Below are positions 3,083 to 54,500 of a DNA stretch of 64,000 nucleotides, piece after piece. The translations under genes were made by a program, and so were the position numbers. The DNA is from Punctularia strigosozonata HHB-11173 SS5 (taxonomy: Eukaryota > Basidiomycota > Agaricomycetes > Corticiales > Punctulariaceae), in NCBI RefSeq assembly GCF_000264995.1, contig NW_006767447.1, positions 73,384 to 137,383 of the forward strand. Direction: 5' to 3'. The notes under the pieces were generated by a model. That model saw only the letters and a list, made by a program, of their open reading frames with translations, did not search any database and was not told where the DNA came from. Every line of letters begins with the position of its first letter. Within the stretch, counting starts at the first letter, position 1.

Positions 3083-6000
3083 TCAACGCTCGGGATGTCC
3101 ATCGGCGGCGAGGACGTCCGGCTCTGCTTCTTCGCGCTCTGCAGGCTTAAGTGCCTCGAGATTTGAGGCGTCCGTCCCTTCTCTCTGGGCCGAGACTTCG
3201 GGCCGTCCACCATCGGGCGTCGAAACAGACGGCGTATCGACAGCTACGTCCGTTGCGCCATATGCAACCGCAGTCCCGTCCAATCTTGGCGCTGAAGCTG
3301 GGAGAGGAGACGGGATCGCGACCCGATACGGAGATCTAGTAGACGAAGCGCTCGGTCGGTCATCGTTCGGCAGCACCGCTTCGTCCGGAACGCGTTGAGA
3401 CGACGTAGCGGGTAGAGGTGACGGGGATGGCATGGCGACGTCGCCACTGTGGGGCTCCTGCCAGGATGCTGGAGCGGTTGGGTCGAAACGGAAGTACTCG
3501 TAGACGTGGGCCATGTTGGTGAATGCCCAGCGCGGATCGCCCCACATTGGGTACCCGTCAGATATCTCTTTGAACGCCAGCTCTATCCGTTCCCTTTCCC
3601 AGCCACGATGGTGTCCCTCCAGGATACGGCGGATGACAGCCGCGGAGCGATCCGGAGACATGCGTTTGTGGGCTCTTATAAAGTGGATGAGAACTCTGAA
3701 ATCGATATCGGCTGGTCCGTTCTTCCCTTCATCATTGATGTTCGTGTGAGCGTACCGCTGCGGCTCCGGGTCGAGCGAACGTCTAATCTCGACGGTGAGC
3801 GCCGAGCTCAAAACGTCAAAGAAAGCGCTCATGGCAGATCCCAACGGCGCTCCCCAGGGATCGCCCTTGAGCCAAACATTGATGAGAATCGATACCGCGG
3901 CCCAGAAAACGTGTCGCTGCGTCGATACCTCTCCCAGTTTCTTCGGCTCTCCTATCGAGGTGACGATTTGGAGAGCTTGGTGGAAATCTTTAGGGCCTGA
4001 AATGATGGGTGAGCTCAGTCGATGCTGTCAGATATAACCACAACAGCCTGGAACTCACCAAGATCGGTCGAAGGATGACGAAGATACCAAGGTCTGATCG
4101 TGAGACATCTGTACACCACTTCATGTCCCGGTAACAGCACGGGTTTGATGTGGCCGATCATGGTGTCAAAGAGAAAGTTGAAGTTCTCTGTCGAAAGCGC
4201 GCGCAACACGAAAAGTACGTAGCGGGGAGGCACAATTTCGCCGACAAATTCAGATAACAACCGCATCATCCAGAGGGAGTTGACAGTCATATATGGAGAG
4301 TGTTTCAGAAGCGTGATTAAGAGCTTGGAAAGCTCCGGCGTCGAGGAGGTTTCAAAAACATCATAGATGTAGCGAATAGCGCTGTCTTTAAACATCCCCT
4401 CAATGCCAATTTCTAGAAGCCGGTGCATTAGGCGTAGTTGATTATCGTTCACTGCTTGAAGAGCTGGGCGAAGGCTATCAAGGCAACGCCCATATCGCTC
4501 CAGGGTTAAGGCTTCATAATCCTTTCCGTAGGGACGAAACCAGATCTCCTCGATGGATATAAGCAGCGGAAGGGAAGGGTCGTCAGGAAATCCGAGGGCC
4601 TCTGAGATGGCAATCCAGGATGCGAACAGGAATTTCATTGGGTCACCAGGCCATCCATCCGGGTGCCATAGCATTGGCGCGCCGCTGTCATTTATTGCCG
4701 CGTGAGTACGTATCCGCGGACCTGGTAACCGATGCAAGCATTCCTCTATGGTGTCCTTGTCCAGTTCACCTTGCGCGGTATACCGTAGCAGCGTCAAGCA
4801 TTGGTTTGCAGTGCTTGTTATAGGATCCCGCCCGAAGCCTCGTAGTGCAAAATCTCGGTGGACCCAATCATTGAATTGGAACAAATCGGGGAAGATGCCT
4901 TTGTCCTCGTGTGACGACGAAGGAGGCGGCAATACATCAACATCAAAGTACGTCGTATGACTGGCAGATGACGAAAATAGTGGGTGGATCTTGCGCAAGC
5001 GGCGGCGTGCGGACGTTGCGAAGCGGTGAGATGAAATGTACAATGGGCGTAGCAATGAGAGAAGCATCCAACCAAACGGTGTTTTGTATGGACAGGCGTC
5101 GTATAACAGCGGTAATACCACAGCAAGTATGGCGGCGAGGACGGTCACCGCGACTGCGACGGTCGCGACCACAAATACTGCGCGATTCAAGGTCCAAGTG
5201 AGAGTAATGAGTCCACCAAGGAATAGCACGACCGCCACCTGTAGGAGTATCGGGACCAAGGTCACAATCGTTGGAATCCTCCATTTCTTGAACGCGTCAA
5301 AGCGGAATCTACGAAGTTGTAGGGCGTGCTGCACAGGAGAAACGGTAGGCCATACAATGTACTCTCGGAGCCACTGTTTGACGATGATGCCGACGAGAGC
5401 GGATCCGAGAGCGAGTACGAGACTCAGAAACCACAGAGTGTTGATAGCCACTACATGTGTTGGGTCATGGAACGGTTGCTTCAGAGCATCCGAAGGCGAA
5501 GTAGCATTTCCTTGCGACATTTCACTGAGCTGTTGAGATATGTCGGATAGGATCTGAAGTGTCAGTTGGTTCTGGTCCGGCTGTAGTTGCTTGTATAGTT
5601 CCACAAGGAATGCCGTGAGGACTGCGGAGAATAGACCGGCCTATGCTCAAGAGATGAGTGGAGTGCAACAAACAGTTGGAGGCAGCGTACGAAGATCAAT
5701 AAGCTATCTATATCCTCCGAATACCCTCTGATCATTTCCCTGTCAAGCCTTTCCAACTGTCCATAGATATGCGTCCATCCTGTACCATCTGCTGATACCC
5801 CAGTCACTGGAACCTGCAAGGATCGCGCATGAATGATGCTAAGCCGCGGAGCGAGTATCGATATAACCTTTTCTTTGTCGTCGTCAGCATCGGGGGACTC
5901 TTCGTGATCAGGATCCCATCTCAAGGCCGTGGGCTCATAACCTTCCATCTGCTAGACAATGAAATAGAGCAATGCCCTTCCTGATAGATAGTTAAGCCTC

Positions 6001-7265: not shown

Positions 7266-10200
7266 TCATGAAGACGAGAATGTGCCGATCATGCGCGGAT
7301 CCACCGAGCCCATGAGGACATCGGAGTCATTTTGGTGATTGAACTGGCCCATCCAGCCAAAGCCTGTGACAGATGACGATAAGCTGGGCAGCCAACGCAC
7401 GACATAGAAAGGTGACGTACCGGGCCAGACGCCTGGCCAGAAGGTCTGGTCCACAGCGGTTTGCATGGTCTGCATCAGCTCGTCGTCAAAGGCGAGCGGA
7501 GGATTGAAGAGAGTCGGATGATCCTGGTTCAGGCCTAGACCCAGCCCGTGCGGGTTCAGGAACGCAGACGAGGTCGGCGAGGTCGGCAGCTGTCCGAAAG
7601 TCGTCGCCGCTGGCGGTGGAGACACGCTCGTCCTCTGCTCCGTAGGAGATGGGTAGTGCGAATTCGGAGCCGAGCGCGAGTGGGGAGCATCGAAGTACGA
7701 TGCGTATTCCACGGTTGGAGACGTGGCGGGCGACACGGTTCGTTGCTTGGGGGCGTTCCGTCTGGCTGCCGAGGAGCGCTTATGTAGCAGTGTCGGGTCC
7801 GCGCGCGCCAAAGGTGTAGCAAGGAGGTTCTCCAAGAAGTGCGAGTATAGCTTCGGTGCATGGCGATCGTCGATGGCGACGTCGGGTGAGCCAAGTAGTT
7901 CGGCGATTCTCTGAACCTTCGGTCGGATACCCTGGCGCTGCTCGACAGTCATGTAGTTTGCGTACTTGGGGTGAAGTAGCTGTAACAACGTGTGAAAATC
8001 TTGATCCCACTTCCAAGTCAAACCGAGTTACCTTGACAAGAAACGCGCAGGCGAACGTAACGAAGACACTTTGAGCCTCCGGGCCATGTCGAAGGAAGAT
8101 TCCTGAGGGGCAAAGAGTCAGCACCATCGATGAGTGCTGGAAGTTGTACGATGGGACTAACTGTTAGTCGCTGTGCCTAGATTATTGGCGAAGTCCGTCA
8201 CGACGTCCGAAGCTGCACGCCAACACTGAACGAGTGAATAGTCAGCCTTCTCGGGTCTTCCGACAGTGTGGAACGAGACTGACTCTTTGCAGGAATTCGT
8301 GAGGGTTTGACCCTCGTTTACCGAAGGCGTGTTGGAATCCGACCGACAAAGCAGCAAGACGCGCGTAGCTGTACGCCAAACTCATGATTCCGCTGCGGAA
8401 CTGGCCTTGCGCATCTCCCGCATCGACCGTCTTCAGCCTGTCCGTCCACACCTTCCAAAGGTTTTGCAGCTTGTCGTCTGTGTCCATCGCCAGCTTGCCA
8501 ATGTCGGCGTCCTGTCGACGCATGCATCGGTCACAACATCAAAACCGAGGACATCAAAGGGGACGATACCTTGTTGAGCAACGTGGGATGATTAGGGTCG
8601 CTGTACACCTTGGCCCTGAACTGCGACAGGCATCGCAACTCTGCGTTGTACCCGCTGAGGTGGATGTCGAAGTTTCTAAGATTGTACTCCGAGCTATGCC
8701 ACCATTCCTCGGAATGGTTCGCGACGTAGTCGTGATTCGGAATGATGGGAGATTTCCCATACTGCGGCGACTTCGTCAACGCACTGCATGCTAGGGCCGA
8801 GAAAATCACAGCTTACTTGTGATCCCGTCGAACGGTCGAGGTTGAAGCAGTTGATCCATGCTCGGGTGCGATTGAGCAGCTCCCGAGCGTGGCTCTCGTT
8901 CCGAGGCTTGGCCGTAGATGGATGATGCAGGTTTAGATCCGTGGCGATTCTATCGAAGGCATGTATAAGCAGCGACTTGAGGTATAGTCAAATACGTCAT
9001 CATTACCTGATGGCCAAGCCGAGGTACAACCACGTCCGATCGTCCTCCCACTTCTTCACGGGTAGCGGATATAGAGCCAGTAATATGTAGGCAAAAACGT
9101 TTTCGACCGTCTTCGGGCCACCAATGAGGGCGGTGCCAGCAGCAAGCCTAGCGTAGTTCATCAACTCCCCGTACAGCTCGGGTCGTAGGCCATAGTAGCG
9201 AGACGCAACGGCACAGACTTGGTGCGGATTCAGTTACAGCGCTTGGACGAGCGGGTGGTGATGTCTACTCACTGACTGTGAACAAGAATGGACTTCGCCA
9301 ATATGTCGTCTTCGCAGTGTAGAGGACGGGATCGAGGATAGAAAGCGAACAGTTCATATAGTCGAAATAACTGCCGCGTACATGACATCAACGTGACGGA
9401 CCAAATGGTACGATCGAAAGTACTCACATCCGGAATAGCTTCTCCACTTCATCGGGCGTCACGATACCCTTGGCGAGTATATGCGGCGCCTGATGTGATG
9501 GATCCACGATCGACGGTCCCCGCGTCTCGGGCTCAGGACCTGGCGAGAGCAATGCCTCATCAGGGGACAGCTACAGAGCACGAGACAATTCCGAGACACT
9601 CACTCGGCCTAAAGTAATCCTCGTCGGCGATACCGACTCTCTCTTCGTGATGCTCCTCCGCCACATCTCCTGATGCATCTCCCTGGCCAGCTCCGGAGGC
9701 TTCCGCGGTTCCAGTCGTGTTCTCGGGGCTGCCAGGCACGCTCTCCGTCCCGCTCCCCTTCTTCCCCGGGCGCTGCTTCCCCGCCTTCATCTTCAAGCTC
9801 ATATCCGCCATCAGCCCAAACGGGACCGCCTCCGTCGGCAACGACGCCAACTTCTGCTTCGTCCCCGCCGCCGGCTCCCTCCTCGCCCCTCCCCCGCTCC
9901 CGTCCTCGCTCGGGTTGTTGCTCGCCCGGCGCGAGCGCGACGGCCCGACGGACATGACCCCGTACGGGCTCCCGGCGTCCACGACCGCCGACTCGCCGTC
10001 GCTCTCGACCGCGATATCGAGCTCCGACTCCTCGTCGAGCACGTCGTAGTCCGCGTACTCGTCCGAGCTCTCCTCGTCCTCCGGGTCCTCGTCCGCCACG
10101 AGCGCGCGCGTCACGCCCCCGCCCCGCGCGCCGCCCATGCCGATGTACCCGCCGAACTGCTCGAACGACGCGCGCGCCTTCGCGATCCAGTCTTGCACGC

Positions 10201-11669
10201 GCGGGTCCGGGGCCGTCGAGGGCGGCGGCGGCTGCCCGAGAGAGTAGCGACCGAGGTCGCGGTCGTCGAGCGGGTCGCCGCGCTCGGCCTCGGGCGAGCG
10301 CGAGTCGGCGGAGATGCCGCTGTGCGACGCGTTCGAGAGCGGCGACATGAGGTAGGGAGCTGATACGGAGAGGCTGGGGGTGGGCACCGACACGTTCTGG
10401 GGCCGGTGCGCGCCCTGGTGTTTGTCGTTGGCGGCCAACGTGGCGGCTTCGAGCTGCTTCATGAGGCGCTCGATGTGGGCGGCCTGGGCTTGGATGCGCT
10501 GCATCAGGTCGCCTCGTTTTCTGTCGAATCACGTCAGTCTACACATGATTCCTTCAGGCGGAACGGCGCGAGCCGTGTACTCACGGCGGCTGCTTGCGAG
10601 GTCTTTTCCCTGGTACGACGCACTCGTGTCCGCCGTTCATGCATCGCCGACAGACGTCCGGGTCGAGGCCCTTGCTGATGCTCAGGTCCGGGTCGCGCAC
10701 GCACTTGACCTTGAGCATCTTGCACCGCGAGCACGCGCCGCGCTCGCGCAGGCTCTCCCGGGGCTGGAGGGTGACACGACCCGCGTCGCGTTCGAGCTCG
10801 CCCTCTCCATCGTCCTCGTTATCCGACGCGTGCGAAGCGTCCGCGGGCTCGCGGTACGCCGCCGCCCTCGCCGCCGCGGAGGACGAGGACGGGTCGACGA
10901 CCGTGTTCGTGCGCTGCCGTTTGAGGCCGGTGCCGCCGCCGCTCGCGGGCATCTGCAGCTGTGGCTGGGGGGGCCGGGCCGGGCGCGCGTCGGCGGGGCT
11001 GCGGTAGTGCGAGGAGGAGCGCGCGGCCGACGTTTCCGGACCCGGACCGGCAGAGGCGGACGGCGGGTAGTGCTGTTGCGGTTGCCGGTACGCGGTGTTG
11101 GGCGGTGCGCCGCCGCCGCCGCCGTAGCCGAAGGTGCCGGGTGCGTTGTAGGCGCCGGACGCGCCGTCGATCGACGTCGGGGAGGTGACGAAGGCGGCGG
11201 CGGGGTCTGAGGTGATCTGGGGTCCCGGGGCGGGGGCGGGCGAGACCCCGGGTCGTCGCGCGCCCGGCATCGGAGGCGGTTGCGCATTTGCCCAATAGGG
11301 CGGTGACGTCGGGGCGAAGGCGCTCGGCGGCGGCGGACGGTGCTGCTGCTGCTGCTGCCCGTACTGCTGCTGATTTAGGGCGGGCTGAGGGGGTTGGGAG
11401 AGGGCGAATGCGTGATCGGGGGGTAGAGACCAGGCATTTTGGGCCCCGTAGGCGGGTTGGTGGTCGTGTTGAGTATCGGCCCCGGGAAACGTGCTGTAGC
11501 TGGGTGCCGTGTTAGGTTGGGGTTGGTACCGAGGGGTGATCGAATGGGACGATGGCTGAGGATGGTCTGGCCCAAACGGTTGAGGAAGGAACTGGTCGTA
11601 TTCCTGGTCGATCACGAACTGCTCGAGCTGGGGCGGCTGGGCGTCCCACTGCTGGAGGCTGGAAGTCAT
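7266..11669 (-). CDS. Zn2Cys6 fungal-specific transcription factor
   Basis: Nuclear DNA-binding regulator of the Gal4-type zinc-cluster class with a fungal-specific middle homology region. Proposed exons: 11669-10585, 10520-9604, 9539-9428, 9370-9273, 9217-9007, 8949-8817, 8761-8570, 8511-8284, 8225-8162, 8102-8032, 7979-7421, 7363-7266 (1255 aa; the frame closes exactly). A Gln/Pro-rich N-terminus of about 300 residues precedes the cluster. Its six Cys fall at about 313, 316, 323, 340, 343 and 350 (C-x2-C-x6-C-x16-C-x2-C-x6-C). A basic linker and a short coiled-coil dimerisation segment (QAQAAHIERLMKQLEAA) follow, then a low-complexity acidic stretch. The regulatory domain is recognisable from LSILDPVLYTA, ASRYYGLRPELYGELMNYAR, ATDLNLHHPSTAKPRNE and CFNLDRSTGSQYGK. 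The family resembles the basidiomycete regulators annotated as prtT- or PriB-like; that link is from memory. A 5-kb gene-free region lies upstream. Confidence 0.88.
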
Positions 11670-14600
11670 GGTGGACGAGTGGGAGGGGAAGTCACCAGAG
11701 ACGGCGACAAGCGTCGAAACTCTTTGATATATCGGCGCGCTAGCGCGCGAACGCTGTCCGGCTCTTCCGCGCGTACTTGTCGTGGAACCGAGAAGAGTCC
11801 ACCGGCTCCAAGGCGGGAGAACGAGGAATGACGAACGAGTTTGGGCTGTCAGCCGATGGATCCGGAGGGGGTGGTATGAAGTGGAAGCAGGGCAGAAGCG
11901 CGAGCCAAAGCCTCGCGCTGGGACCGGACTGGTGTGGTCAGTATTATATTTACGGACGCGCTAAGGCGGTAATGTAATGCACGCCGCCAGGGCGAATCGC
12001 TGTCACGGCGCTGTCAAACGGTCGCATCTTCGGGAGGTGCAAATCCCGTGTGGCGTTCCCGTAGGCCTGTGCCCATGCCCCGCCTCCAACAACGTGCCCG
12101 GCCCGCCGAATATTCGCGCGCCTCCCTTGCTTCTCTCTTTCCACATGCACGCCTACAGCCAACCAACACGCGCTCTCGGCTGTTACCATCGGCAGCAAGC
12201 CAGCGATACACTGCCAGTCCTCGACCCTGCGTCCTCAACAAAAGCGCGAAAAACTCGAATTGATAACGGCCATCGCACGAATCCAGGGCCTCGAGCGATT
12301 CGCGATGAACGTGGGTCGCGGCACTGATACATAACGAACTCTCGACAGCTCTCAACCCGTCCAAACCTTGCAATTGGCGCAACATGGTTCCGACCATCCG
12401 CGCTTGTAAGGGCCTGGACCCTGCCCCCCCTCCCCCCTTGTTCTCTTCGTGGCGAACCCGCGAGCCCGCGCCCGTCCAAGCACGGCCTCCCGAACCTTAT
12501 CGACTCCTTTTTCTCTCGGTTGCACGATGATCCATCGCGCGCGGTGTTACAGCACATGCTTAGTGCGCTGTGTGCCTCTGCCTTCTTTCGTTGAATCGTT
12601 AGGCCGGGTGGCACAGCCGGGAGATACACATGCAGCACATGCGTTCGCGACCGCAGACCAAGATTCCGATCTCTCGCGTTTCAGGGACGCATTTCGCACT
12701 ATCAGGGCGATCTTCCGGATGGCGGGCTACGTTCTGCACGGAAGTACATTTAAGTACATCGTATCCTGGAGTTTATCGAGCATGAAGCTGACGGCTTAAC
12801 GTAGTGGGATAATCCGTTTGCGTGGAACTGGCAAACCGGTTTGATAAATTCGTTTTCGATCGGCTGCTCTTTTGAAATCTGACCTTGGTGGCAAGCGCGG
12901 CTCGAGCGCGCGATCGACTTGTCTCCCCTCTCGGAAATACTCCCGTCGATCCCCTTAATCGGGACATCATCTCACGTGACCGTGCGTGTGGACGGGAAAC
13001 GCGAAAGAAAACCGCGAGAGCGTCCGTCCTTTCCGCCGGTCCTACTTACGTGCACGCTGCGAGGGGCGCATCAGTGGTAGTCAACGCGTTCGTGTCTCGA
13101 TCGCATCAGCGCTCGAGAGTCGACCACTATACCAGGTTCAGGCGCGCAGAAGCGACGTTCCGAGTGAAGTTAGAAGCGCCACTGTCAGAGCTGCAGTCAT
13201 GAGTCTCAGATTCATCTCGGAGTCAAGCCAATGGATGACTTCCCGTAAGATCTGTAGCGACAGAAACACAGAATAAACAGTTCAAACCCCGATCTGTGGG
13301 TTATGCTGTACGTTTATGCCCCCGTACGGCCCTGTGCGTGTGGGGCGGAAATAGAACATCATAAACGCGGAGGTCCGTTGAGAAGGGCTGAGTAGCGAAT
13401 GAGGAAGAGGGAGGGTCACGTGCATGACAAATTCAAGTCTGTAAACGGGCATTCTGGTCTGGAAGGGGGGGTCGACCCCCCTTCCAGATAAAAGGTCTGT
13501 ACGAGGGACTTGTAAACCGACAACTTGGCTCGTCGTTGCCGATTTTTCGGCATCGCTCGCTTAGTGGATTTGTAAGCGAAATCTATTCTATTCGGCCTTA
13601 CAGATCCTTACGGGAAGTCACCCAATGATGAGGCGAGACTCGTATTGGACTTTTCTCGTTATGAGCCTGCACCATGAGCGCGATCTTGGAGCATCTTGTA
13701 CGGCTGGTGGTGTGCATTGTGCCGTTGTCTATGGCTAATCCATATCTCGGTACCGGGCCTCGGGTACGTCGGCCAGGGCTGCGAAGATCCTTGGGGAACA
13801 AAAGAGCGCCTGCTCGGACAAATCCTCCACCCCCTCTGCTTGCAGGACGCCACCTCCCTCATCGACGGAACTCCCGCGTCATTCACGCAAACTCTCCTAC
13901 AGAACGGGGCTCTCCGAACGTGCGAAGGCGAACCCATGGCGGGCACCTAATCCGGCTTAATTATGTCCGCGCACGGGAGGAAGCGAAAAGCTTGCGTAAA
14001 CTCCGTTTCTTAGTATAGCTGTTCTTCCCCCCCCTTCCCCCAGCTTCGTCCTCGGGATGAAACCCCATTTGTGACCCTGTCGAACAGGCCGGTGAGGCTC
14101 TCTCATTTCCGTCACTCTCGGTGGGGGGGACCGCTGAGAAGTTAGCATGTGTGTGTGTAGTGTTCATGACGGAATGCGTTGGCGTGCGCGAATCTCTTTC
14201 TTCGAGGAAGGCGATAACGGAAAATGCTCAGCTGGTCGACGCACGCATAGGAACGGGGGAAACGCTGCGGGGCGTTACAGGTGTCTATATTATCCACCCC
14301 GGGGCCCACTCCGCTGCACCGGCGCCAACGCCATCGGGCAAAGTATTGAAACGCGAGTTCCCCCCCGCACAGTGACGTTCCCACCACCGATTTTTCACGG
14401 GCGCGCGCCCCTTGTCTTCGACGCCGTATATCTTCCGGTTCGCTTTCATCTGCTCGGCGTCTTTAGAATACTCGGAGGGAGACGGGTAGGGAAATATGCC
14501 TTGTTGGTGCTCGAAGGGATCCTCGCTGCGCCGGCCCTTATCGGCGTTCGTCCTTGCCACCTGATCATCTCCGAGAGTATCTGGCATCCCTTGGAAGCTT

Positions 14601-31145: not shown

Positions 31146-32108
31146 ATGACGGCCATTTCCAAGGTCGCAATTGCAGGCGTAAGTTCATCTGCGTCTTCAC
31201 GCTTGCCGCGACATGCATGATCTGACGTCCCATATCTTTCGTAGGCAACTGGTAACATCGGCCCGGCCGTCCTCGAGCAACTCCTCCTCGCCAAGTTCGA
31301 CGTCACCGTCCTCTCGCGCTCCAACAACCCATCCGGCCTCCCCGCCGGCGTGACCGTCCACAAAGTCGACTACGAGTCCGTCGAATCCCTCACCGCCGCT
31401 CTCCAGGGCATCGACGCGGTCGTCTCCACCGTCGCCTCATCCGTCCTCGCCGTCCAGACCAAGATCGTCGACGCCGCCGTCGCCGCCGGCGTCCGGCGCT
31501 TCCTCCCTTCCGAGTTCGGCCACGACATGCGCCACCCGGCCGCTCGGGCCCTCTCCGTCTTCGCGCCCAAGGCCCGCGTCGAGGAGTACCTCCAGAAGGT
31601 CGCCGCCGAGACGAACCTCACCTACACCTTCGTCAGCACCGGGCCGTTCCTCGACTGGGGCCTCCACGCCGGCGTCCTGATCGGGTCCCTGAAGGAGCGC
31701 AAGGTCGAGATCTTCGACGGGGGTCGCCTGCCGTTCAGCACGACGACGCTCGCGACTATCGGCCGCGCCGTCGTGTCGGTGCTGCGCCACCCGGAGGAGA
31801 CGAAGAACCGCACGGTCACGCTCCACGAGGCGGTCGTGAGCCAGAGCAAGCTGCTGGAGATCGCGAAGGAGCTGACCCCAGGAGAGGAGTGGACCGTCAC
31901 GGAGAGAAAGTCGGCGGACTTGAAGGCGACGGCGGACGCGAAGATCGCGAAGGGCATCTTCGACATGGAGGTGATCGTGTCGCTGATAAAGTGGTCGATG
32001 TTTTCCGACGATTTCGAGAACGAGTTCAAGGACGTGGACAACGAGTTGCTCGGGATCAAGACGATATCCGACGAGGAATTGAAGGCCATTGTAAAGTCTG
32101 CTCTGTAA
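31146..32108 (+). CDS. NmrA-like / isoflavone reductase-type oxidoreductase
   Basis: NAD(P)H-dependent reductase of the NmrA/PCBER (isoflavone reductase-like) family, cytosolic. Exons 31146-31178 and 31245-32108 (298 aa, frame closes); the first intron splits the glycine motif. The N-terminus reads KVAIAGATGNIGPAVLEQLL with the GxxGxxG motif at about 11-17, followed by VLSRSNNPSG with an Arg expected for NADPH binding. VVSTVASSVLAVQTKIVDAA and RRFLPSEFGHD are the family's third strand and substrate loop. The SEFGHD segment is typical of the fungal and plant isoflavone-reductase branch. The C-terminal half (TTLATIGRAVVSVLRHPEE) is also conserved in family position. Plant relatives reduce phenolic compounds, so a role in aromatic metabolism is possible but not shown. 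A TATA box lies about 100 bp upstream. Confidence 0.92.
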
Positions 32109-36117: not shown

Positions 36118-38736
36118 ATGGAGGACATTTCAGCGCCTCATACCGTGGATTTGCAGGAGCAGATAGACTTGTTAGACAACGTGAGTGGTTGATCGCATGG
36201 ACCACAAAGGAGCAAAACGAGGAACTCAACGTGCTCTCTAGGGCCTCGACCGGATACGTCAAACGGACGGTACGTTTCGAAGGTCCCTGCGCACGCTGAG
36301 AGAACTGTGCGGGGAAAGCGGGCTCGTACCCACCAGGTACAGGTTGTCGGGACTGGCCAGGGTTGGGACCGATCCACCTTGCGCTGGCGGATTCGCCGAC
36401 GTATACCGGGGGACCTACAACGGCACGATTGTGGCTCTGAAGTTCATGCGACTGCACGTCAGGGATGGGAAATCGTTCATGAAGGTGCGTGACCTACGAT
36501 GCCAGACCAAACCGTCCGCTCGGTCAACTCGGCGACTACGATCAGGTGTTTTGCAGGGAGGCTGTCGTCTGGAAACGACTGAATCACCCACATATCGTCC
36601 CCTTCATCGGCATCGATCCGTCGTACCACGCGTGTATCGTGTCGGAATGGATGGAGCATGGCGATGTCATGTCGTATCTTGAAAGCCACCCGCGTGCAAA
36701 TCGCGTTCAACTGGTGAGCGTCGCGTTCTGATGCGCACCGTGTCAACCTCACGGGGCCACATCAGATCACGGACATTGCTCGTGGCTTGGAGTACATGCA
36801 TGCCAGCGGTCTCGTCCACGGGGATCTCAAAAGCGTGAGTGGGTATCCTCCTGAACGGTCAATCCATATTCAGTCATCGGGACGCAGCGCAATGTCCTCG
36901 TTGACAGCCTTGGGCATGCGCGTCTCAGTGACTTTGGTCTCGCTACGACGGTACTTGGTACCGCCACTCTGGCGCCGACTGCTGGGTCGTCAGCAAATTG
37001 GGGCTCGTTTCATTACATGCCCCCCTGAGTTGTTCGATCCGATGGTACAGGATAAGAGCTTGACGTGGAAGTCTGACGTGTATGCATTTGGGATGACCGC
37101 ATGGGAGGTGAGTGCAAGTTCGACGTCGCCGAACCACGTAAACCGATCCGACTTGCAGATCTTTGATGGGAGGCATCCTTTTTTCCATGTTGCAAACATG
37201 TTCTTGGTCATTCGTGAGGTTCTCGACGGTGTACGACCAACACGTCCTCTGCATGCAGGCCTGGACGATTTCATATGGAGTAATGTCATCAGCTCCTGCT
37301 GGGTAGCAAATCCGTCTGAGCGACCTCGGATTTCGGAAGTACTAGATCGGCTTCAATGGTATGAAACCGCTGAATGGTTGATTGCGAAGCTGCTGGATGA
37401 AGGCCTTGCGGAGGTGGATCGACAAGGTCTCGACGAGATGCTGTCTACAGGTTGGCCGGCGCGTCATCATGTTCCCACAAGCTCTGTACTGAACTCGCAC
37501 AGAGATAGGCAGGGCTGCTATATTCACTATCGCTGATTCAAGCACGCTTTCTGAGTCTTTTGAAGCCATGCTAGGCGAATCAACAGACTCAGACTTGCGC
37601 GAGACACGAGCGATCGATACGATATTGGTCCTCGGCACAATGTCGTCGTTCCTGCCAGGCGTGAACTTGAAGCGATATCCCAGACACATGATGGACAAAC
37701 TTGTGCCTCACGTTGACAAGAGACGACCGGGGATCCAGCAGGCGATGGCGAGGATGACACGCTATTGCGGTGGTACGCGGTATTTGGATGCGTTGTGCGC
37801 GTTGTATTGACTCCATCATCATGGCTAGCGCTGCAGCGTACGATGCAAGGTCATTCCAATTATGTATTCTCTGTTTCCTTCTCTCCGGATGGCTCGCAAA
37901 TCGCCTCGGGCTCAGGGGACCACACATGCCGGATTTGGAACGCGGAAACCGGGAAGGAAGTCGGCGAGCCTTTACGGGGGCACACGGACGAGGTCAGATC
38001 GGTGTCGTTTTCCCCCGATGGAAAGCGCCTTGCCTCTGGCTCATTGGACCGCACCGTGCGACTGTGGGACGTGGAGACAGGGCTGCAGATCAGGCAGCCG
38101 CTCGAAGGGCATACGGACTGGGTTGCGTGTGTCGCATTCTCACCCGACGGCCACCGCATCGTCTCGGGCTCAGGCGACGCGACGCTCCGACTCTGGGACG
38201 CGCAGACGGGACAGGCCATCGGCGAGCCTTTCCGGGGTCACTCTGACTGGGTTCGGAGCGTCGCATTTTCACCGGATGGGAAGCACATCGCCTCAGGATC
38301 CAGCGACCACACGATTCGACTCTGGGACGCCGAGACAGGTGAGCCAGTCGGGGACCCGCTGCGAGGCCGCGATAGCTACGTTGTGTCAGTCGCATATTCC
38401 CCCGATGGTGCGCGCATCGTCTCGGGCTCCGACAACAAGACGGTCCGGATCTGGGACGCTCAGACAAGGCAGACGGTGGTGGGGCCGCTGCAAGGGCACA
38501 AAGACGCGGTCCGCTCGGTGGCGTTCTCGCGGGATGGCAAGCACGTCGTCTCCGGCTCCTACGACGGCACGATGCGGATATGGGACGCGCAGACGGGACA
38601 GACCGTGGCAGGGCCTTGGGAAGCCCAGGGTGGCCGCTGGGGGGCTTGCTCCGTTGCGTTCTCGCCCGATGGCAAGCGCCTCGTCTCGGGGGGTTATGAC
38701 AACGTGGTGAAGATATGGGACGCAGAGGTTGATTAG
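36118..38736 (+). CDS. Protein kinase-WD40 fusion (one apparent 1-nt shift)
   Basis: Proposed exons: 36118-36180, 36242-36484, 36546-36713, 36766-36834, 36888-37107, 37159-37450, 37509-37772, 37829-38736. The N-terminal part is a tyrosine-kinase-like (TKL) domain: glycine loop CAGGFADVYRG, VALKFM with the catalytic Lys, HPHIVPFIGI, LVHGDLKSRNVLV as catalytic loop (HGD for HRD), LSDFGLA, SFHYMPPELFD, KSDVYAFGMTAWE and a C-lobe ending NPSERPRISEVLDRL. About 100 residues of linker follow, then seven WD40 repeats from 37838 to 38736, each ending IWD or LWD (RIWNAETGKEV, RLWDVETGLQI and so on), enough for one closed propeller. The last two introns join the parts in frame. One C too many in a C6 run at 37020-37025, inside the MPPEL motif, breaks the frame; it is either a sequencing error or a real lesion. 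If the fusion is wrong, the window has a kinase (to about 37536) and a separate WD40 gene (37765-38736). Confidence 0.7.
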
Positions 38737-42467: not shown

Positions 42468-43508
42468 CTACAAACAGCTTGCAAGGAACTCCACCGCTTT
42501 ACCGACTGCATCCTCTGCCGCAGGCGCCTCGACGCCGAAGTTGTCCTTGCTGAGCAGTCCGTGCTCCGCGTCCGGTACAGGGATCAGCTCGTTCTTGATC
42601 CCCGCTTCGTCTAGCAGCGCCTTCAACGTCTCGCTGTGGGCGAGCGGTACCGCGGTGTCCGCCATTCCATGTACTGAGACGACGGGAGGGAGCTCGCGGA
42701 CGAACAGCAACGGGAACAGAGGACGGATTTCGTCGTCCAGCGCGTGAGCCCGCGCGTCTTTTGTAGGCAGCGCTCCTAGAGTTTTGCTGAGCCCCGGGCG
42801 ATTGGTGAGGTAGTCTGGGATGACACCCTCTTGAATGACATATATCATCGTCATGTGCCGCCCATCGGCGCACTCGTACGTGGGCGCCCGCATGGGCGAG
42901 CCCGAAGACGGTGGCGGGTGAAGAAGCTTGTCGAGGTCGAAGGATTTGTTGAGGCCGCCGAAGAAAGGCACACCGTCAGGGTGCGGGTGCACATAATGAT
43001 CGTCAAGGAGGTCGCTCAACCCGAACATGTTCAGCACAGCTTTGGGCTTGAGGGATGCCTGAAGAGCATACTGAAGCGCCATGTAGCCACCCGCGGAGGC
43101 GCCCGCAGTAAATATAGAGTTGGAGGGGACGAGGCCGGAAGGAAGGGAGTTGCGGAAGGCGTCGGAGCTGAGGAAGGATGAAAGCGCGCGAATGTCGGCG
43201 AGGATATCATGCCCGTTGAAGGGCAGCAGGAGGCGATAGTCCGCGGTAATAAAGATCCACTTGCGCTTGAGTGCGGCGTCTAGCAGAGTATTTTCGGTCC
43301 TCCATAAGATTTCAAGTAATAGCAAGCGGGACTTACCACACAGCGAGAATGGAAACAAGTCATCGTCGCGCGATCCGCAGTACAGACCGCCGCCGTGGAA
43401 CCAGATGAGGATGGGTGCGGAGCCATTCGCGTCTGGGGCATACAAGTCCAGTTTGACGTCAATACCGCCGACGTGCGAGTATATGAGGGTTTTCGGGGAA
43501 GAAGACAT
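42468..43508 (-). CDS. HSL-type alpha/beta hydrolase (esterase/lipase)
   Basis: Alpha/beta-hydrolase of the hormone-sensitive-lipase/carboxylesterase group (Abhydrolase_3), likely a cytosolic esterase of unknown substrate. Exons 43508-43337 and 43279-42468 (327 aa, frame closes). Motifs: oxyanion-hole HGGG in ILIWFHGGGLYCGS at about 42-45, nucleophile elbow GASAGG, acid Asp in HGMADTAVPLAHSE, and His in PDAEHGLL. No signal peptide is seen at the chosen Met (MSSSPKTLIYSHVG); the frame is open to 43577 but that start would add a non-conserved extension. The lid region (HPHPDGVPFFGG) is typical of fungal members. It converges with the glycopeptide gene. Confidence 0.9.
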   Translation of the reverse strand: MSSSPKTLIYSHVGGIDVKLDLYAPDANGSAPILIWFHGGGLYCGSRDDDLFPFSLCGKSRLLLLEILWRTENTLLDAALKRKWIFITADYRLLLPFNGHDILADIRALSSFLSSDAFRNSLPSGLVPSNSIFTAGASAGGYMALQYALQASLKPKAVLNMFGLSDLLDDHYVHPHPDGVPFFGGLNKSFDLDKLLHPPPSSGSPMRAPTYECADGRHMTMIYVIQEGVIPDYLTNRPGLSKTLGALPTKDARAHALDDEIRPLFPLLFVRELPPVVSVHGMADTAVPLAHSETLKALLDEAGIKNELIPVPDAEHGLLSKDNFGVEAPAAEDAVGKAVEFLASCL

Positions 43509-45002
43509 GGCCGCTCTGCAAGGATCTGGATGGTTCAGCTGAATCGACTGATCCAAAGGCTGGCGATGTCGATCCACGGGTCGCTCTCTTCATATCGTAG
43601 TCGATTGCTTTCGGCGTATCCTTATTTCGTATGCGTATGCTGATAAAGCATGGGAGTCAGCGGGACGTCAGGCTTATCGACGGTTGAATCAGCGTGACGA
43701 CTTGCCACAAGGTTCAGTGCCACCTTTGGATGGAGATGGCGAGACTAAAATATTTGATCCTGGTTGTGGGCACCGAAAAGGAGAAGAGATCCTAGAAAAG
43801 GTGAGTAAGAACCATCGAAGAGGAACAAATGTGTACGACGATATGTACGCGAGTAATACTGCTTACGTAGGTGAGTTGTCAGGTAACCGGGGGGACGTTC
43901 CTGATCATGTGACATTTTTTGCAGTGTTCACTGCCTTCTTGGTATTACTTACGCTCGTCAAGCGAGGACTTGGCCGGCGCTGCAAGCGTGGCCGTTTTCT
44001 AATTTATTCTCCCGCGACAGCACACAGAATCAGTCGATATCATACATCAGCTCGGTCGACATGTATCACTCTCTTCGTCCATATGCTCTGCGCTATCCAG
44101 TGGGTCAAGCTTGTGCGCGTGTCGTACAAGGCGCCAGGTATAAAGCCCCGATCGTGATATATGCTTCTTCACAGCATGTTGAAGCTGATGCTCCCCTTCC
44201 ACGACTGCGATCTCTGTGAATTGCGTTCGGTGGGTCAAAAGGTAGACCCGATATTAGGGTCAGTCAGCTGCTTCCGAGATTTCGCCGGTCCACCTGAAGC
44301 GATCGCATACCGGTGCTCGGACGATATCGATTGGCTGTGCACCGCCTAACGCCCTCGGGCGCGTGATGTCGTCGCGTATCTCCTCGGGCAGTATGATTTG
44401 AAGCAAATGTCGAAGTACCCTCCGAGAACACTCAACTATCCTTGCCATCCTCTTGTTGCGCCTACGATGCACAAGCGTGAACATCAGCAAAACAGTCTCA
44501 CACAGGACAACTATGAATGCTTGTGGGAAGGATTGACGAACAGTATCTGGAAACTGATGTAGGATGCTATATTGGGACACCTGAGGTTTCTCAAGCCGCA
44601 ACAATGGCATTAACACTGGCATTCACTAGATTCTCATCGACATAGTCATAGCACCGTGCGGTAGGTTTGCTCGTCTCATATAATTTTGCACCAGGCAAAG
44701 AATACCGAGGTGCCACATGCAATCACATAGCGAAGATCACATTTACGATTTTCATTTGTGCATAGGCCCGCGATATTCCCAGATCAAGTGCTGGATCATG
44801 TTCGATCTCAAAATTAGCCCCAAGCTTGCATTCTACATCATGTTGGCGCTATATCAAGAGGCAAGGGCCAATGATCCAAGATGTGGTGGTCTAAATACAT
44901 GATTGACCCAACAGATAGGAATGCTGCTGGTACGTATAAAGCGCACGGAAGCCGACGAACTTCTCCTCGATTTCGCTCGTCGTAATCCTGCGAGTCCACG
45001 TT
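43509..45002. other. 1.5-kb stretch without a supported gene
   Basis: Frames at 43684-44157 (+) and 44260-44622 (-) each contain a hydrophobic segment next to a basic run (VFTAFLVLLTLV then KRGLGRRCKRG; FIVVLCETVLLMFTLV then HRRRNKR). They resemble pieces of membrane proteins but no complete gene or family could be built. They may be decayed remnants, given the damaged DUF6534 gene next door. Confidence 0.4.
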
Positions 45003-51537: not shown

Positions 51538-54500
51538 ATGGACGCCACTGACGGATCCCACCCGGATCCCGCACCCACCGCTTCTTCTCGTTCGTCACTC
51601 AACTCTGGCACACCACACTATGTCGTAACCCCCACCGACGAAACCCTCGGCACGCAACGCTTCCCTGTCGTAACACTCTCTGATCCACGCGTCAACGGCC
51701 CCGACCCTCAACCCCTATTCTATCCTTCTCCCAGTGATACCGTCTCGCTCGGAGCGCCCCTCTCTGACTTCGACGAGACGGAGTTCGGGCGTGACTACCC
51801 CAGCGGACAACGTCAAGACGGCTCAGCCGTCATACCACCACAGCAACCAAGCTTCGCAGACCCATACCTCTTCCCGCTACTGGCGCGGAACGAGCTGAAG
51901 CGCCTCACTTCACTATGGTACTACACCAATTCCATCCTCAACGATCACGATCTCCTAGAGCAACTGCAGGGCACCGTCGACGTCGTCCATGTGAGCACGC
52001 GTCTTCGCACCGTTATAGGACGTTCGCCCGGTCCTAATTTCGGACGTGGCAGGACATCATGCAGCAGGATTGCACTTTCCTCGGCTTGATGGACCACGAC
52101 AGCTACACGCACATCGTCACCAACAATTGCCCGCTCTCCACCGTTCCCCGCCGGGAGGCCACGTGCGCGCACACCATCCTCCAGGACTCAGACACCGTCT
52201 TCTCCCTCCCGAACATGCTCGAAGACTGGCGCTTCGCCGCCTCGCCGTCCGTCCAGGCCGGCATGCGCTCCTACGTCGGCACCCAGCTCCTCTACCGTCT
52301 TCCGGGAACTGACGTCGAGGTTGCCTTCGGTTCGCTCTGCGTCTCCTCCAACTCGCCCAAACCGGCGCCGAGCGCGGTTCAGATCAACACCCTCAAGCGA
52401 CTTGCGAAGACGATGGTGCACATGATCGTCGAGCGTGCCAACATCCGGCGGCGGAAAGTCCAAGAGGAGATGGTCGCCAAGCTCGCCGCAGTGCTCCAGG
52501 ACGTCACGCCGGGTAATCTCATCGAGCGCCGGCTGAACGTCCTTCGCGAGTGTTACCCAAGCTGCCACGTATCGTATCAGATCCAGCAGGACGGCGTCGT
52601 CCGCCTCCGAGGCGGGCCTCGGGTCCCGTACGAGCAGGTGCGCGACTCCCTCTGGGAGGCGACGGACGCCATCCTCAAGGTAATCCTGGACAACCACACC
52701 CCAATACACCTCTCGCGCCCCACGAATCAGGCCGTGCGCGCCATCGTCGTTCGCGTGCCGTCGGCGGACGACGCGTACCTCGTGGTGGAGACGGACGACC
52801 TGAAGACCGTGTTCGACACCATCGACGTCTTGTTCGTCGTCCAGTGCGCCACGTCCATCTCTAACGTCGTCATGAGTGCGGACCTCAACGCGGCAGCCGC
52901 GTCCAAGGACTTGTTCCTCCGTGGAATGACCCACGATCTCCGGACGCCCATCCACGCGATCATCGCGTCCGCCGAATTGTTGAAGGAGGGGTCCTCGGAC
53001 GTCGAATCAACGCCACGTACGCCAGGAAAGGAAACATCCCGACGCATGCTGGACGTCATCGAAGGCCAGGGCAACCACCTCCTTGCCATGGTCAACAGTC
53101 TGATCCGCCTCAATCACCTCGGGGTGGCCGACCAGTATGACCTCAGCACATCCTTGCAAAACCTCGCAGCAATCGAGCAAAGCGTCGTGGAAGGGATCAC
53201 GAACTCTGCGGCGTACGCTGAGCGGAAGACCGAAGTCGCCGTCTTGGTCGATAACCAGCTGCCGGCGACGGCGGAGCTGCTCCTCACCAACGTAGCAACC
53301 CTCGGCATCGTGCTCAGTTCCCTCATGGGCCACGCACTATCGACGACGACCCGGGGCAGCATCTGCCTCCGCACGTCCCTCTCGCCAGACCGCGCCTTCC
53401 TCGACTACGAGGTCATAGATACCGGAGCGGGGATCGTACCCCAAGATTGGGGGCGCGTGTTCCCCCCTGCCGAGCCCGTAGCGGATCCCGACGACAGCGA
53501 CCCCGCACATCTTCGTCTCAGCATAGCGACCGCATCCCGCATCGCAAACGCGCTGAGCGGGGCACTTTCGCTCGTGTCCTGCACCCCGGGTCGGGGCTCC
53601 CACTTCCGGTTGCGGCTCAACAAGCCCGTGATTGCTCCCGACAAGGACCCGGAGAGCGTCCGGCACCGATTGAAGAAATCGATTATGCCGCTCACGTATT
53701 ACGTGCTCGACGGTGGCCCGCCGTCGGTGACGCACGTTGCCCAGCAGCTCGGAAGGCTCGGCTTCACCGAGACTTCAAAGGAAGGGGCGGCGATCGCCCT
53801 CGGCGATGCCAAGATGGCGCGTTTGGCACTTGAGCGACTGACGAACCCGTGGCAGACCGCGTTCCTCGTGTCTGGTGAGCCCACGAGCGAGGCGCGTCCA
53901 GCTAACGCCCCCGGCTGACCTTGATGCCTGGCGCGCAGACTCTATCGAAGAGGCTGGACATCACCGGCGCCCGTCTAATCCGCGGGTGCTCCGTAGCCCG
54001 TCGCCGGTCGTTCGCGCGCGTCTCTGGGCCGTCATCGACGCGGCCCTGCAGAACTACCACCGACGAGGACCGCTCTCCGCCGGCGCTTTCCAGGCATCGC
54101 GCAACTCGACCCCGTCCGCCGGCGACGCGCCCAGACGCGATCGGTCCTCGATTCGCCTGCTCATCGTCGACGACAACGAGATCAACGTCAGGATACTCGT
54201 CATGTACGCCAAGCGCCGGGGCTACGCGCACGCCACCGCACGCGACGGGCAGGAGGCCGTGGACCAATTTGCAGACGCGCTGGCGAGCAGGGCCCAACAG
54301 CCCGCGGGGACGTTCGACCTGGTGTTGATGGACCTGCAGATGCCGAAGATGGACGGCGAGGAAGCGACGCGTCGGATCCGGGTGCTGGAGCAAGACGCCG
54401 GCGTGTATCCTAGCCTCGTCTACATCGGTCAGTGTCGTCCCTGTCAGAAGTGCGTGCGCGCAGTTTGGCTAAAGGGGCGCGGTCGGGGGGGTACTAGTGT

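What the first reader, a model, noticed from the sequence alone, without database searches (positions are those of the whole stretch)
36118..38736. Kinase domain spliced in frame to a seven-bladed WD40 propeller
A TKL-type kinase and a seven-repeat WD40 domain sit on the same strand. Two introns (37451-37508, GT-AG, and 37773-37828, GT-AG) join them without a stop: TRYCG then ALQRTMQGHS. WD40 repeats of this kind are usually attached to NACHT or other STAND domains in mushrooms. A kinase in that place would be an NLR-like layout with kinase output and a repeat-based sensor. The repeats are very alike, which suggests recent repeat exchange as in fungal NLRs.
Basis: partly seen in the sequence, partly recalled or inferred. 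Interest (0 to 1): 0.75.

Follow-up and report, generated by a model that had tools for sequence, protein, structure and literature searches.

The report
Fungal kinases with hypervariable propeller sensors
A mushroom-type fungus carries a large family of genes that join a signalling enzyme (a kinase, or in sister genes a lipase-like enzyme) to a seven-bladed binding domain whose outer surface varies strongly from gene to gene, as in known fungal self/non-self receptors; the copy in this window appears broken by one extra base.

Summary
The kinase-WD40 join is real as a gene family: 17 loci of this genome carry kinase - linker (found in 12) - one seven-bladed WD40 propeller, with conserved introns. 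The window copy itself is interrupted by a +1 frame break at a run of six C in exon 5 (37020-37025), not seen there in the 16 other copies, and is a mosaic of two paralogue types. Five propeller columns (6, 7, 9, 25, 27) are hypervariable; they include the four codons reported under positive selection in Podospora HET-D/HET-E (PMC1805685). Similar propellers, often with the same linker, sit behind a Tle1-like hydrolase domain (PF09994) at 16 loci. No NACHT was found at the kinase loci. Best reading: NOD-less recognition receptors with interchangeable enzyme outputs. Function is inferred, not shown.

The parts
36118..36180 (+). Exon 1 with the start codon (MEDISAPHTVDLQEQIDLLDN)
   Evidence: a match that begins with M at the same place in 13 of 17 genes, the window gene included, four of them weak (E 0.09-0.24)
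36242..36484 (+). Exon 2: N-terminal region, glycine-rich loop and VALK lysine of the kinase
36546..36713 (+). Exon 3: kinase N-lobe (REA glutamate) to hinge
   Evidence: GT..AG at the homologous place in 14 of 14 (E2/E3) and 17 of 17 (E3/E4) genes examined
36766..36834 (+). Exon 4: HGDLKS catalytic loop
36888..37107 (+). Exon 5: RNVLV, DFG, activation segment, PPE, DVYAFG; 220 nt with a +1 frame break
37020..37025 (+). Run of six C at which the frame changes; in-frame TGA at 37026-37028
   Evidence: in register in the 16 other paralogues
36951..36993 (+). 43-nt GT..AG stretch whose removal would put both sides in one frame, at the cost of part of the activation segment; judged unlikely
   Evidence: Read; coding in the paralogues; the other introns of the gene are 51-61 nt
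36970..37020 (+). Approximate switch point of the mosaic: upstream like paralogues G05/G06, downstream to about 37450 like G02/G03
   Evidence: 175 informative sites; bins 36200-36900 hold 42 B and 3 A, bins 37000-37400 hold 82 A and 3 B; identities of exons and introns
37159..37450 (+). Exon 6: kinase C-lobe and tail; ends in phase 1
37451..37502 (+).
37503..37772 (+). Exon 7: linker module (EIGRAAIF...TRYCG), phase 1-1 exon, no Pfam match; probably helical
   Evidence: AF2 gives helices at low confidence (pLDDT 55)
37773..37828 (+). Intron, 56 nt, acceptor GGCTAG; the CAG six bases upstream present in G02-G06 (5 of 5) reads CAT here
37829..38736 (+). Exon 8: seven-bladed WD40 propeller and stop TAG (38734-38736)
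37843..38616 (+). Blades 1-6, 43 codons each; codons 6, 7, 9, 25 and 27 of each blade are hypervariable between paralogues

Best explanation
This is one (interrupted) member of a recombining family of NOD-less recognition receptors in an Agaricomycete-like genome. Shown: a kinase of TKL type, often a linker encoded by a phase 1-1 exon, and a seven-bladed WD40 propeller lie in one order with conserved introns at 17 loci; the propeller varies at five positions per blade that map to its top loops, while kinase and propeller framework are under purifying selection; similar propellers and linkers also occur behind a Tle1-like hydrolase domain (PF09994). Inferred: the variable face binds a polymorphic partner (another individual's protein, a parasite's protein, or a guarded host protein); binding relieves inhibition or brings kinases together through the linker; the kinase then phosphorylates itself and a downstream cell-death or defence target, while the hydrolase sisters act on lipid. 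The window copy is probably a non-working or mis-assembled recombinant of two such genes.
For: Architecture and splicing; GT..AG of the four kinase junctions at the homologous place in 14/14, 17/17, 16/16 and 16/17 genes examined. Linker HMM built from 11 kinase genes hits 7 of 12 fetched hydrolase loci at 1e-3 or better, three of them with three copies each. Hydrolase domain upstream of the propeller at 16 loci (positions compared by hand; Pfam 5.1e-17 and 1.7e-15 on open-frame pieces of two loci; GFSRGA and WFAGSHSDM in L059). Columns 6, 7, 9, 25, 27: mean entropy 2.0-2.5 bits against at most 0.9 elsewhere (14 genes); the same five rank top in 13 kinase genes (lowest 2.20, next column 1.15) and in 8 hydrolase genes (1.72, next 1.10) taken apart. 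Four recent kinase pairs: dN/dS 2.84 at these columns, 0.38 elsewhere; with only the four codons named beforehand in PMC1805685, 2.59, Fisher p 6.6e-4, 1.86-4.16 in each pair. Kinase segments: 25 of 30 dN/dS values 0-0.47. Kinase and hydrolase propellers do not separate into clades, AU p 0.015 on 21 genes. 13 of 33 loci on one 262-kb contig, expected 0.26. In blade 2 of the model the columns fall just before or at the start of strand a and in the b-c turn (mapped by hand), as described in PMC1805685.
Against: No expression, ligand, phenotype or population data. ML dN/dS at the four a-priori codons is not significantly above 1 (13 kinase genes 1.15, p 0.63; 8 hydrolase genes 2.51, p 0.056; all 21 1.41, p 0.15); with the five columns chosen from these data it is 1.47 (p 0.15), 4.09 (p 0.0017) and 1.94 (p 0.0037). 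Saturation and recombination may explain this, but it is a weakness. The Fisher counts treat differences as independent. Five of 30 kinase segments, all in the N-lobe and with few changes, have ratios 0.56-1.89, and two of the linker ratios exceed 1 (1.28, 1.54). Three of 17 kinase genes look damaged: the window copy, G11 around E2/E3, and G17 with a stop in E2. G14-G17 have propellers only 53-58% identical to the window's and no linker hit. No linker hit at 1e-3 in 5 of the 12 hydrolase loci (L048 0.0032; L037, L042, L043, L047 none). The MLKL_N partner search found nothing, but no control rang. One strain of one species was seen.
Confidence: 0.6

Rival explanations
1. Ordinary signalling kinases that use WD40 as a docking scaffold. 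The variable top loops reflect paralogues adapting to different internal partners or relaxed constraint, not recognition of foreign or allelic proteins.
For: TKL kinases are expanded in Laccaria (PMC2838846 passages), and kinase and WD40 domains are enriched in ectomycorrhizal fungi (PMC8955403 passage), without any immune claim. Tree-based ML ratios at the a-priori codons are not significantly above 1.
Against: dN/dS 1.86-4.16 at the four a-priori codons in each of four recent pairs; relaxed constraint alone should not exceed 1. The variable codons coincide with those selected in HET-D/HET-E, and the same pattern sits behind an unrelated enzyme.
Confidence: 0.22
2. Two separate neighbouring genes: a kinase gene that ends near 37.5 kb and a WD40 gene with its own start.
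For: The window copy has a frame break in the kinase and lacks the CAG acceptor before the WD40 exon that G02-G06 have. An in-frame ATG lies three to five codons after the start of the propeller match in 10 of 11 genes examined; four of them have further in-frame ATGs upstream.
Against: Kinase and propeller lie in the same order and strand at 17 loci; the linker exon is open and has in-phase junction options on both sides in 11 of 11 genes examined; that ATG would cut off the first strand of the propeller and is missing in G13; in G10, which shows no linker, kinase and propeller matches are 80 nt apart, the size of an intron.
Confidence: 0.04
3. The frame break in this copy is an assembly error in a homopolymer and the window gene is intact and working.
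For: It is a one-base difference in a C run, and the rest of the gene is open.
Against: The copy also carries CAT in place of the CAG acceptor of its five closest paralogues; the break lies within about 50 nt of a recombination switch; two other members look damaged too (G11, G17), so decay does occur in this family. Confidence lowered from 0.40 to 0.35.
Confidence: 0.35
4. Degenerate NLRs: STAND receptors that lost a NACHT domain.
For: Effector plus WD40 is the outer part of HNWD-type NLRs, and NOD-less or 'contracted' relatives are mentioned for fungal protease receptors (passage of PMC10197012, cut in the output). The propellers of G14-G17 (53-58% identical to the window's) are no closer to it than those behind NACHT matches.
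Against: WD40 matches downstream of NACHT matches are at most 62% identical to the window propeller, those of G02-G13 68-82% (compared by hand). No PF05729 match lies within 20 kb of the 17 loci. STAND families other than PF05729 were not searched, and no tree with NACHT-WD40 propellers was built.
Confidence: 0.12

Closest known systems
HNWD/NWD NLR family of Podospora anserina (het-d, het-e, het-r)
   Same: C-terminal WD40 domain with selected codons 7, 9, 25, 27 of the repeat and purifying selection at 8 and 26 (PMC1805685 passages); a multigene family with different N-terminal domains (PMC4986451 passages).
   Different: No NACHT found. Blades keep their identity by position with no sign of homogenisation between blades, and all 21 propellers split into blades keep a 43-residue spacing apart from small inserts, whereas hnwd repeats vary in number and evolve in concert (PMC2873952 passages).
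PkwA and other bacterial Ser/Thr kinase-WD40 proteins
   Same: Kinase and WD40 in one protein; the PkwA propeller 5yzv is the best PDB match of the model, 46% identity. Kinase domains inside WD40 proteins are reported for Cyanobacteria and Planctomycetes, and less often for eukaryotes (PMC5587647 passages).
   Different: Here a TKL-like kinase, introns, a linker module, and a diversified paralogue family in a fungus.
Fungal NOD-less protease-repeat receptors that control gasdermins
   Same: Reviews describe protease domains fused directly to WD40, TPR or ANK repeats (passages of PMC12881547, and PMC10197012).
   Different: Kinase or Tle1-like hydrolase instead of protease; gasdermin partners were not looked for here.
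Fungal NLRs with a PKinase domain
   Same: PKinase is listed among NLR-associated domains (PMC4986451 passage; PMC12258605 passages).
   Different: Those carry NACHT or NB-ARC; in Sordariales 9 of 12 have the kinase C-terminal as a putative integrated decoy (PMC12258605 passages).
TKL expansion in Laccaria bicolor
   Same: Same kinase group (PMC2838846 passages).
   Different: That paper's main text contains neither WD40 nor WD-40 (term counts).

Membership tests
NLR / STAND receptor | Central NACHT or NB-ARC nucleotide-binding domain | tested here: not met
   23 PF05729 matches in the genome, none within 20 kb of the 17 loci (compared by hand); the window exon model leaves only introns of 51-61 nt between modules. 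NB-ARC and other STAND families were not searched.
NLR / STAND receptor | N-terminal effector or signalling domain | tested here: met
   Kinase or PF09994 hydrolase
NLR / STAND receptor | C-terminal superstructure-forming repeats | tested here: met
   Seven WD40 repeats, propeller model pLDDT 93.7
HNWD-type WD40 sensor | Hypervariable codons 7, 9, 25, 27 in each repeat | tested here: met
   Top-entropy columns 6, 7, 9, 25, 27
HNWD-type WD40 sensor | dN/dS above 1 at those codons | tested here: inconclusive
   2.59 in four recent pairs (p 6.6e-4), not significant by tree-based ML
HNWD-type WD40 sensor | Concerted evolution of repeats within a gene | tested here: not met
   126 of 126 blades nearest to the same-index blade of another gene (blades 1-6 of 21 propellers)
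HNWD-type WD40 sensor | Controls heterokaryon incompatibility or immunity | not testable with these tools
   Needs crosses, knock-outs or population data
TKL protein kinase | Catalytic Lys, HGDxK..N and DFG motifs | tested here: met
   Motifs present in 16 of 17 aligned kinases; G12 has HGDLHS and DFLLS
TKL protein kinase | Closest to the TKL group by sequence | tested here: inconclusive
   Best PDB match is an EGFR entry, then TNNI3K, CTR1, ERBB4, B-RAF; the HGDLK loop favours TKL over TK (recalled); no kinase-wide tree was built
TKL protein kinase | Continuous open reading frame in this copy | tested here: not met
   +1 break in exon 5
Bacterial PkwA-type kinase-WD40 | Bacterial kinase gene without introns | tested here: not met
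   Seven introns in the window gene, conserved in the family

The most novel reading that the evidence does not exclude
Basidiomycetes use a NOD-less receptor class in which one diversifying seven-bladed propeller, often with a shared linker module, is swapped between enzyme outputs (TKL kinase, Tle1-like hydrolase) by recombination, partly through phase 1-1 exons; these genes would be strong candidates for basidiomycete somatic incompatibility or innate immunity. Each blade keeps its identity and diversifies at its top loops, unlike the repeat shuffling of Podospora.
Probability: 0.42. Interest if true: 0.85.

Novelty: new variant of a known kind. Interest (0 to 1): 0.63.

Why it matters
If right, the recognition surface of HET-D/HET-E-type NLRs also works without a NOD, coupled directly to a kinase or a lipase-like enzyme, and both forms draw on one pool of propellers. 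That gives a concrete candidate set of 33 loci in one genome for recognition in mushroom-forming fungi, and a case where recognition diversity arises at fixed blade positions and by exchange between paralogues rather than by repeat shuffling. It also gives a kinase output, reminiscent of RIPK3-MLKL signalling (my comparison; RIPK3 and MLKL are discussed in PMC12881547 passages), that can be tested.

Tried and rejected
Recent repeat exchange between blades: rejected. NLR membership: rejected for lack of NACHT. Separate WD40 gene: judged very unlikely. The 43-nt stretch as an intron: judged unlikely because the paralogues code through it. Identity of the linker: no Pfam match for the window's own linker and four chance-level families, one member each (best E 0.019), among 10 linkers scanned; PDB search with the linker profile gave two matches, best E 0.33; the AF2 model is too weak to search; a scan of bacterial genomes with the linker alignment did not run. 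MLKL_N partner: no match, and no control rang. Species: not identified; 13 peroxidase matches (PF00141) only hint at a wood-decay basidiomycete. Other fungal genomes: none on hand. Literature: 10 searches of the held open-access library listed no paper whose title or shown abstract start describes a fungal kinase-WD40 or DUF2235-WD40 receptor family; subscription papers and preprints are not covered. All papers were seen as listings or term passages, none was read whole. My first recollection of the selected codons (in a note) differed from the 2007 paper and was replaced by the paper's own numbers; the same notebook says '12/12' for the acceptor, the recount gives 11 of 11. Rows dropped: one hydrolase locus with a withheld stretch was left out of the propeller tree (29 of 30 used); the blade analyses used 21 of 30 propellers or 14 of them, leaving out G14-G17, the contig-end locus and four hydrolase loci for distance, indels or withheld letters; blade 7 was left out because its spacing varies. 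Propellers beyond the 30 fetched loci were not read, nor were 4 of the 16 hydrolase loci.

Full report
What is in the window. The gene starts at ATG 36118 and has eight exons (start of E7 refined). Exons 1-6 encode a protein kinase (PF07714 8.9e-28) that I call TKL-type: its best PDB match is an EGFR entry, followed by TNNI3K, CTR1, ERBB4 and B-RAF, and its HGDLK loop fits TKL rather than TK (recalled). Exon 7 is a linker of about 90 residues without a Pfam match. Exon 8 is a complete seven-bladed WD40 propeller (pLDDT 93.7, pTM 0.91; nearest solved structure the propeller of the bacterial kinase PkwA, 46% identity). Two corrections. And exon 5 is broken: it is 220 nt long, and at ATG-CCCCCC-TGA (37017-37028) the kinase frame runs into a stop while the rest of the kinase continues one base over. 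At this place the 16 other copies are in register (15 abut; G12 is open across 30 nt in the same frame).

A family, not a single oddity. A search of the window's own genome (33.57 Mb, 32 contigs) found the same order at 17 loci, the window included. GT..AG lies at the homologous place in 14/14, 17/17, 16/16 and 16/17 of the genes that could be examined at the four kinase junctions. A start-like M at the matching place is found in 13 of 17, four of them weak matches. The linker is found in 12 of 17: 11 by tblastn and G11 by HMM. In G10, whose sister G08 has it, kinase and propeller matches are 80 nt apart, as expected if a phase 1-1 exon was lost without harm to the frame. Not all members are sound: besides the window copy, G11 is disrupted around E2/E3 and G17 has a stop in E2, and G12 has altered catalytic motifs. 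A possible eighteenth locus (C8:457017-458816, kinase and WD40 matches that both contain stops) was not examined.

A second output. Twelve of the fetched loci have a propeller of the same kind but no kinase. Upstream lies PF09994, the Tle1-like phospholipase catalytic domain (DUF2235 is its older name, recalled). Comparing the positions by hand gives 16 such loci. GFSRGA and WFAGSHSDM were found in L059, which holds the N-terminal part of one of them; the other eight loci scanned for GFSRGA do not reach that far upstream (positions). An HMM made from the kinase genes' linkers hits 7 of the 12 fetched hydrolase loci at 1e-3 or better, three of them with three copies; a locus at a contig end whose N-terminus is out of reach also has three; L048 is at 0.0032 and four loci have no hit. 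Of the 33 loci, 13 lie on one 262-kb contig where 0.26 are expected.

How it evolves. Kinase parts are conserved: 25 of 30 segment values of dN/dS are 0-0.47, the other five, all from the N-lobe with few changes, 0.56-1.89; whole propellers give 0.42-0.87 (10 pairs). G02 and G03 are 98-100% identical in kinase protein but 76% in the propeller. Splitting propellers into 43-residue blades, columns 6, 7, 9, 25 and 27 have mean entropies of 2.0-2.5 bits and all others at most 0.9 (14 genes, blades 1-6). The same five lead in 13 kinase and in 8 hydrolase genes separately. Paoletti and others (2007, PMC1805685, passages) report codons 7, 9, 25 and 27 as positively selected and 8 and 26 as conserved in the WD40 units of the Podospora HET-D/HET-E family, on the top face of the propeller. 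The numbering agrees: here column 8 is V in 81 of 84 and column 26 is D in 80 of 84. In four recent kinase pairs dN/dS is 2.84 at the five columns and 0.38 elsewhere; with only the four codons named beforehand it is 2.59 (p 6.6e-4), between 1.86 and 4.16 in each pair. Against this, ML estimates on trees with the a-priori codons are 1.15, 2.51 and 1.41 for kinase, hydrolase and all genes, none significant at 0.05. I take the hypervariability as shown and positive selection as likely.

Exchange. Blade exchange within genes is rejected: for 126 of 126 blades the nearest blade in framework columns has the same index in another gene (chance 20.2) and none lies in the own gene. This differs from the concerted evolution of hnwd repeats (PMC2873952 passages). 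Exchange between genes does occur. The window gene is a mosaic: bins from 36200 to 36900 hold 42 sites like G05/G06 and 3 like G02/G03, bins from 37000 to 37400 hold 3 and 82. Propellers of kinase and hydrolase genes do not separate into clades (AU p 0.015 on 21 genes; recombination inside the propeller weakens such tests). Kinase gene G13 groups with hydrolase propellers at moderate support (86/95 for the fork of four).

How it probably works. By analogy with HET-E/HET-D, the variable face would bind a polymorphic partner, the kinase or hydrolase would be the output, and the linker would couple them. Only the anatomy and the pattern of variation are shown. It works like the sensor of a fungal NLR but is not one by the test made here: no PF05729 match lies within 20 kb of the 17 loci. 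Direct enzyme-repeat fusions without a NOD are described for fungal gasdermin proteases (passages of PMC12881547 and PMC10197012), and kinase-WD40 proteins are known in bacteria and, less often, in eukaryotes (PMC5587647 passages). So this is a new variant of a known kind. What seems new is the combination: shared diversifying propeller, shared linker, two outputs, fixed blades.

The window copy. It is either a decaying recombinant or carries an assembly error. The frame break, the CAT in place of the CAG acceptor before exon 8, the nearby recombination switch and the damage seen in two other members favour decay, but reads would decide. Copies without visible damage exist in the same genome (e.g. 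L013, L015) and are the ones to study.

Noticed in passing
G000 contig C8, about 788.6-848.1 kb (loci L017, L015, L014, L020): Two kinase-WD40 genes on + (G07, G06) and two on - (G09, G05) are pairwise sisters in the kinase tree (G07/G09 100/100, G05/G06 86/80): an inverted duplication of a two-gene block.
   Followed up: partly
L026 (G12): Kinase with HGDLHS and DFLLS in place of HGDLKS and DFGLA: possibly a pseudokinase member.
   Followed up: no
L025 (G11) about 780-910; L058 (G17) within E2: G11 lacks the usual end of E2 and start of E3 and has a long G run there; G17 has an in-frame stop in E2. Both look damaged.
   Followed up: partly
G000:C8:457017-458816: Kinase match directly followed by a WD40 match, both with stops inside: a possible eighteenth, broken family locus.
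   Followed up: no
L053 (start of contig C8): Propeller preceded by at least three tandem linker modules; the N-terminal domain is cut off by the contig end.
   Followed up: no
window 4018-5640 (-): Open frame with a strong DUF6535 match (1.6e-45).
   Followed up: no
window 52038-53915 (+): Histidine kinase (HisKA 6.6e-13, HATPase_c 8.2e-6).
   Followed up: no
window 31245-32105 (+) and 42471-43589 (-): NmrA-like oxidoreductase (1.9e-27) and an alpha/beta hydrolase (BD-FAE 5.5e-12), ordinary neighbours.
   Followed up: no
window 10001-12000: G+C of 0.685 against 0.48-0.64 in every other 2-kb bin of the window; not explained.
   Followed up: no
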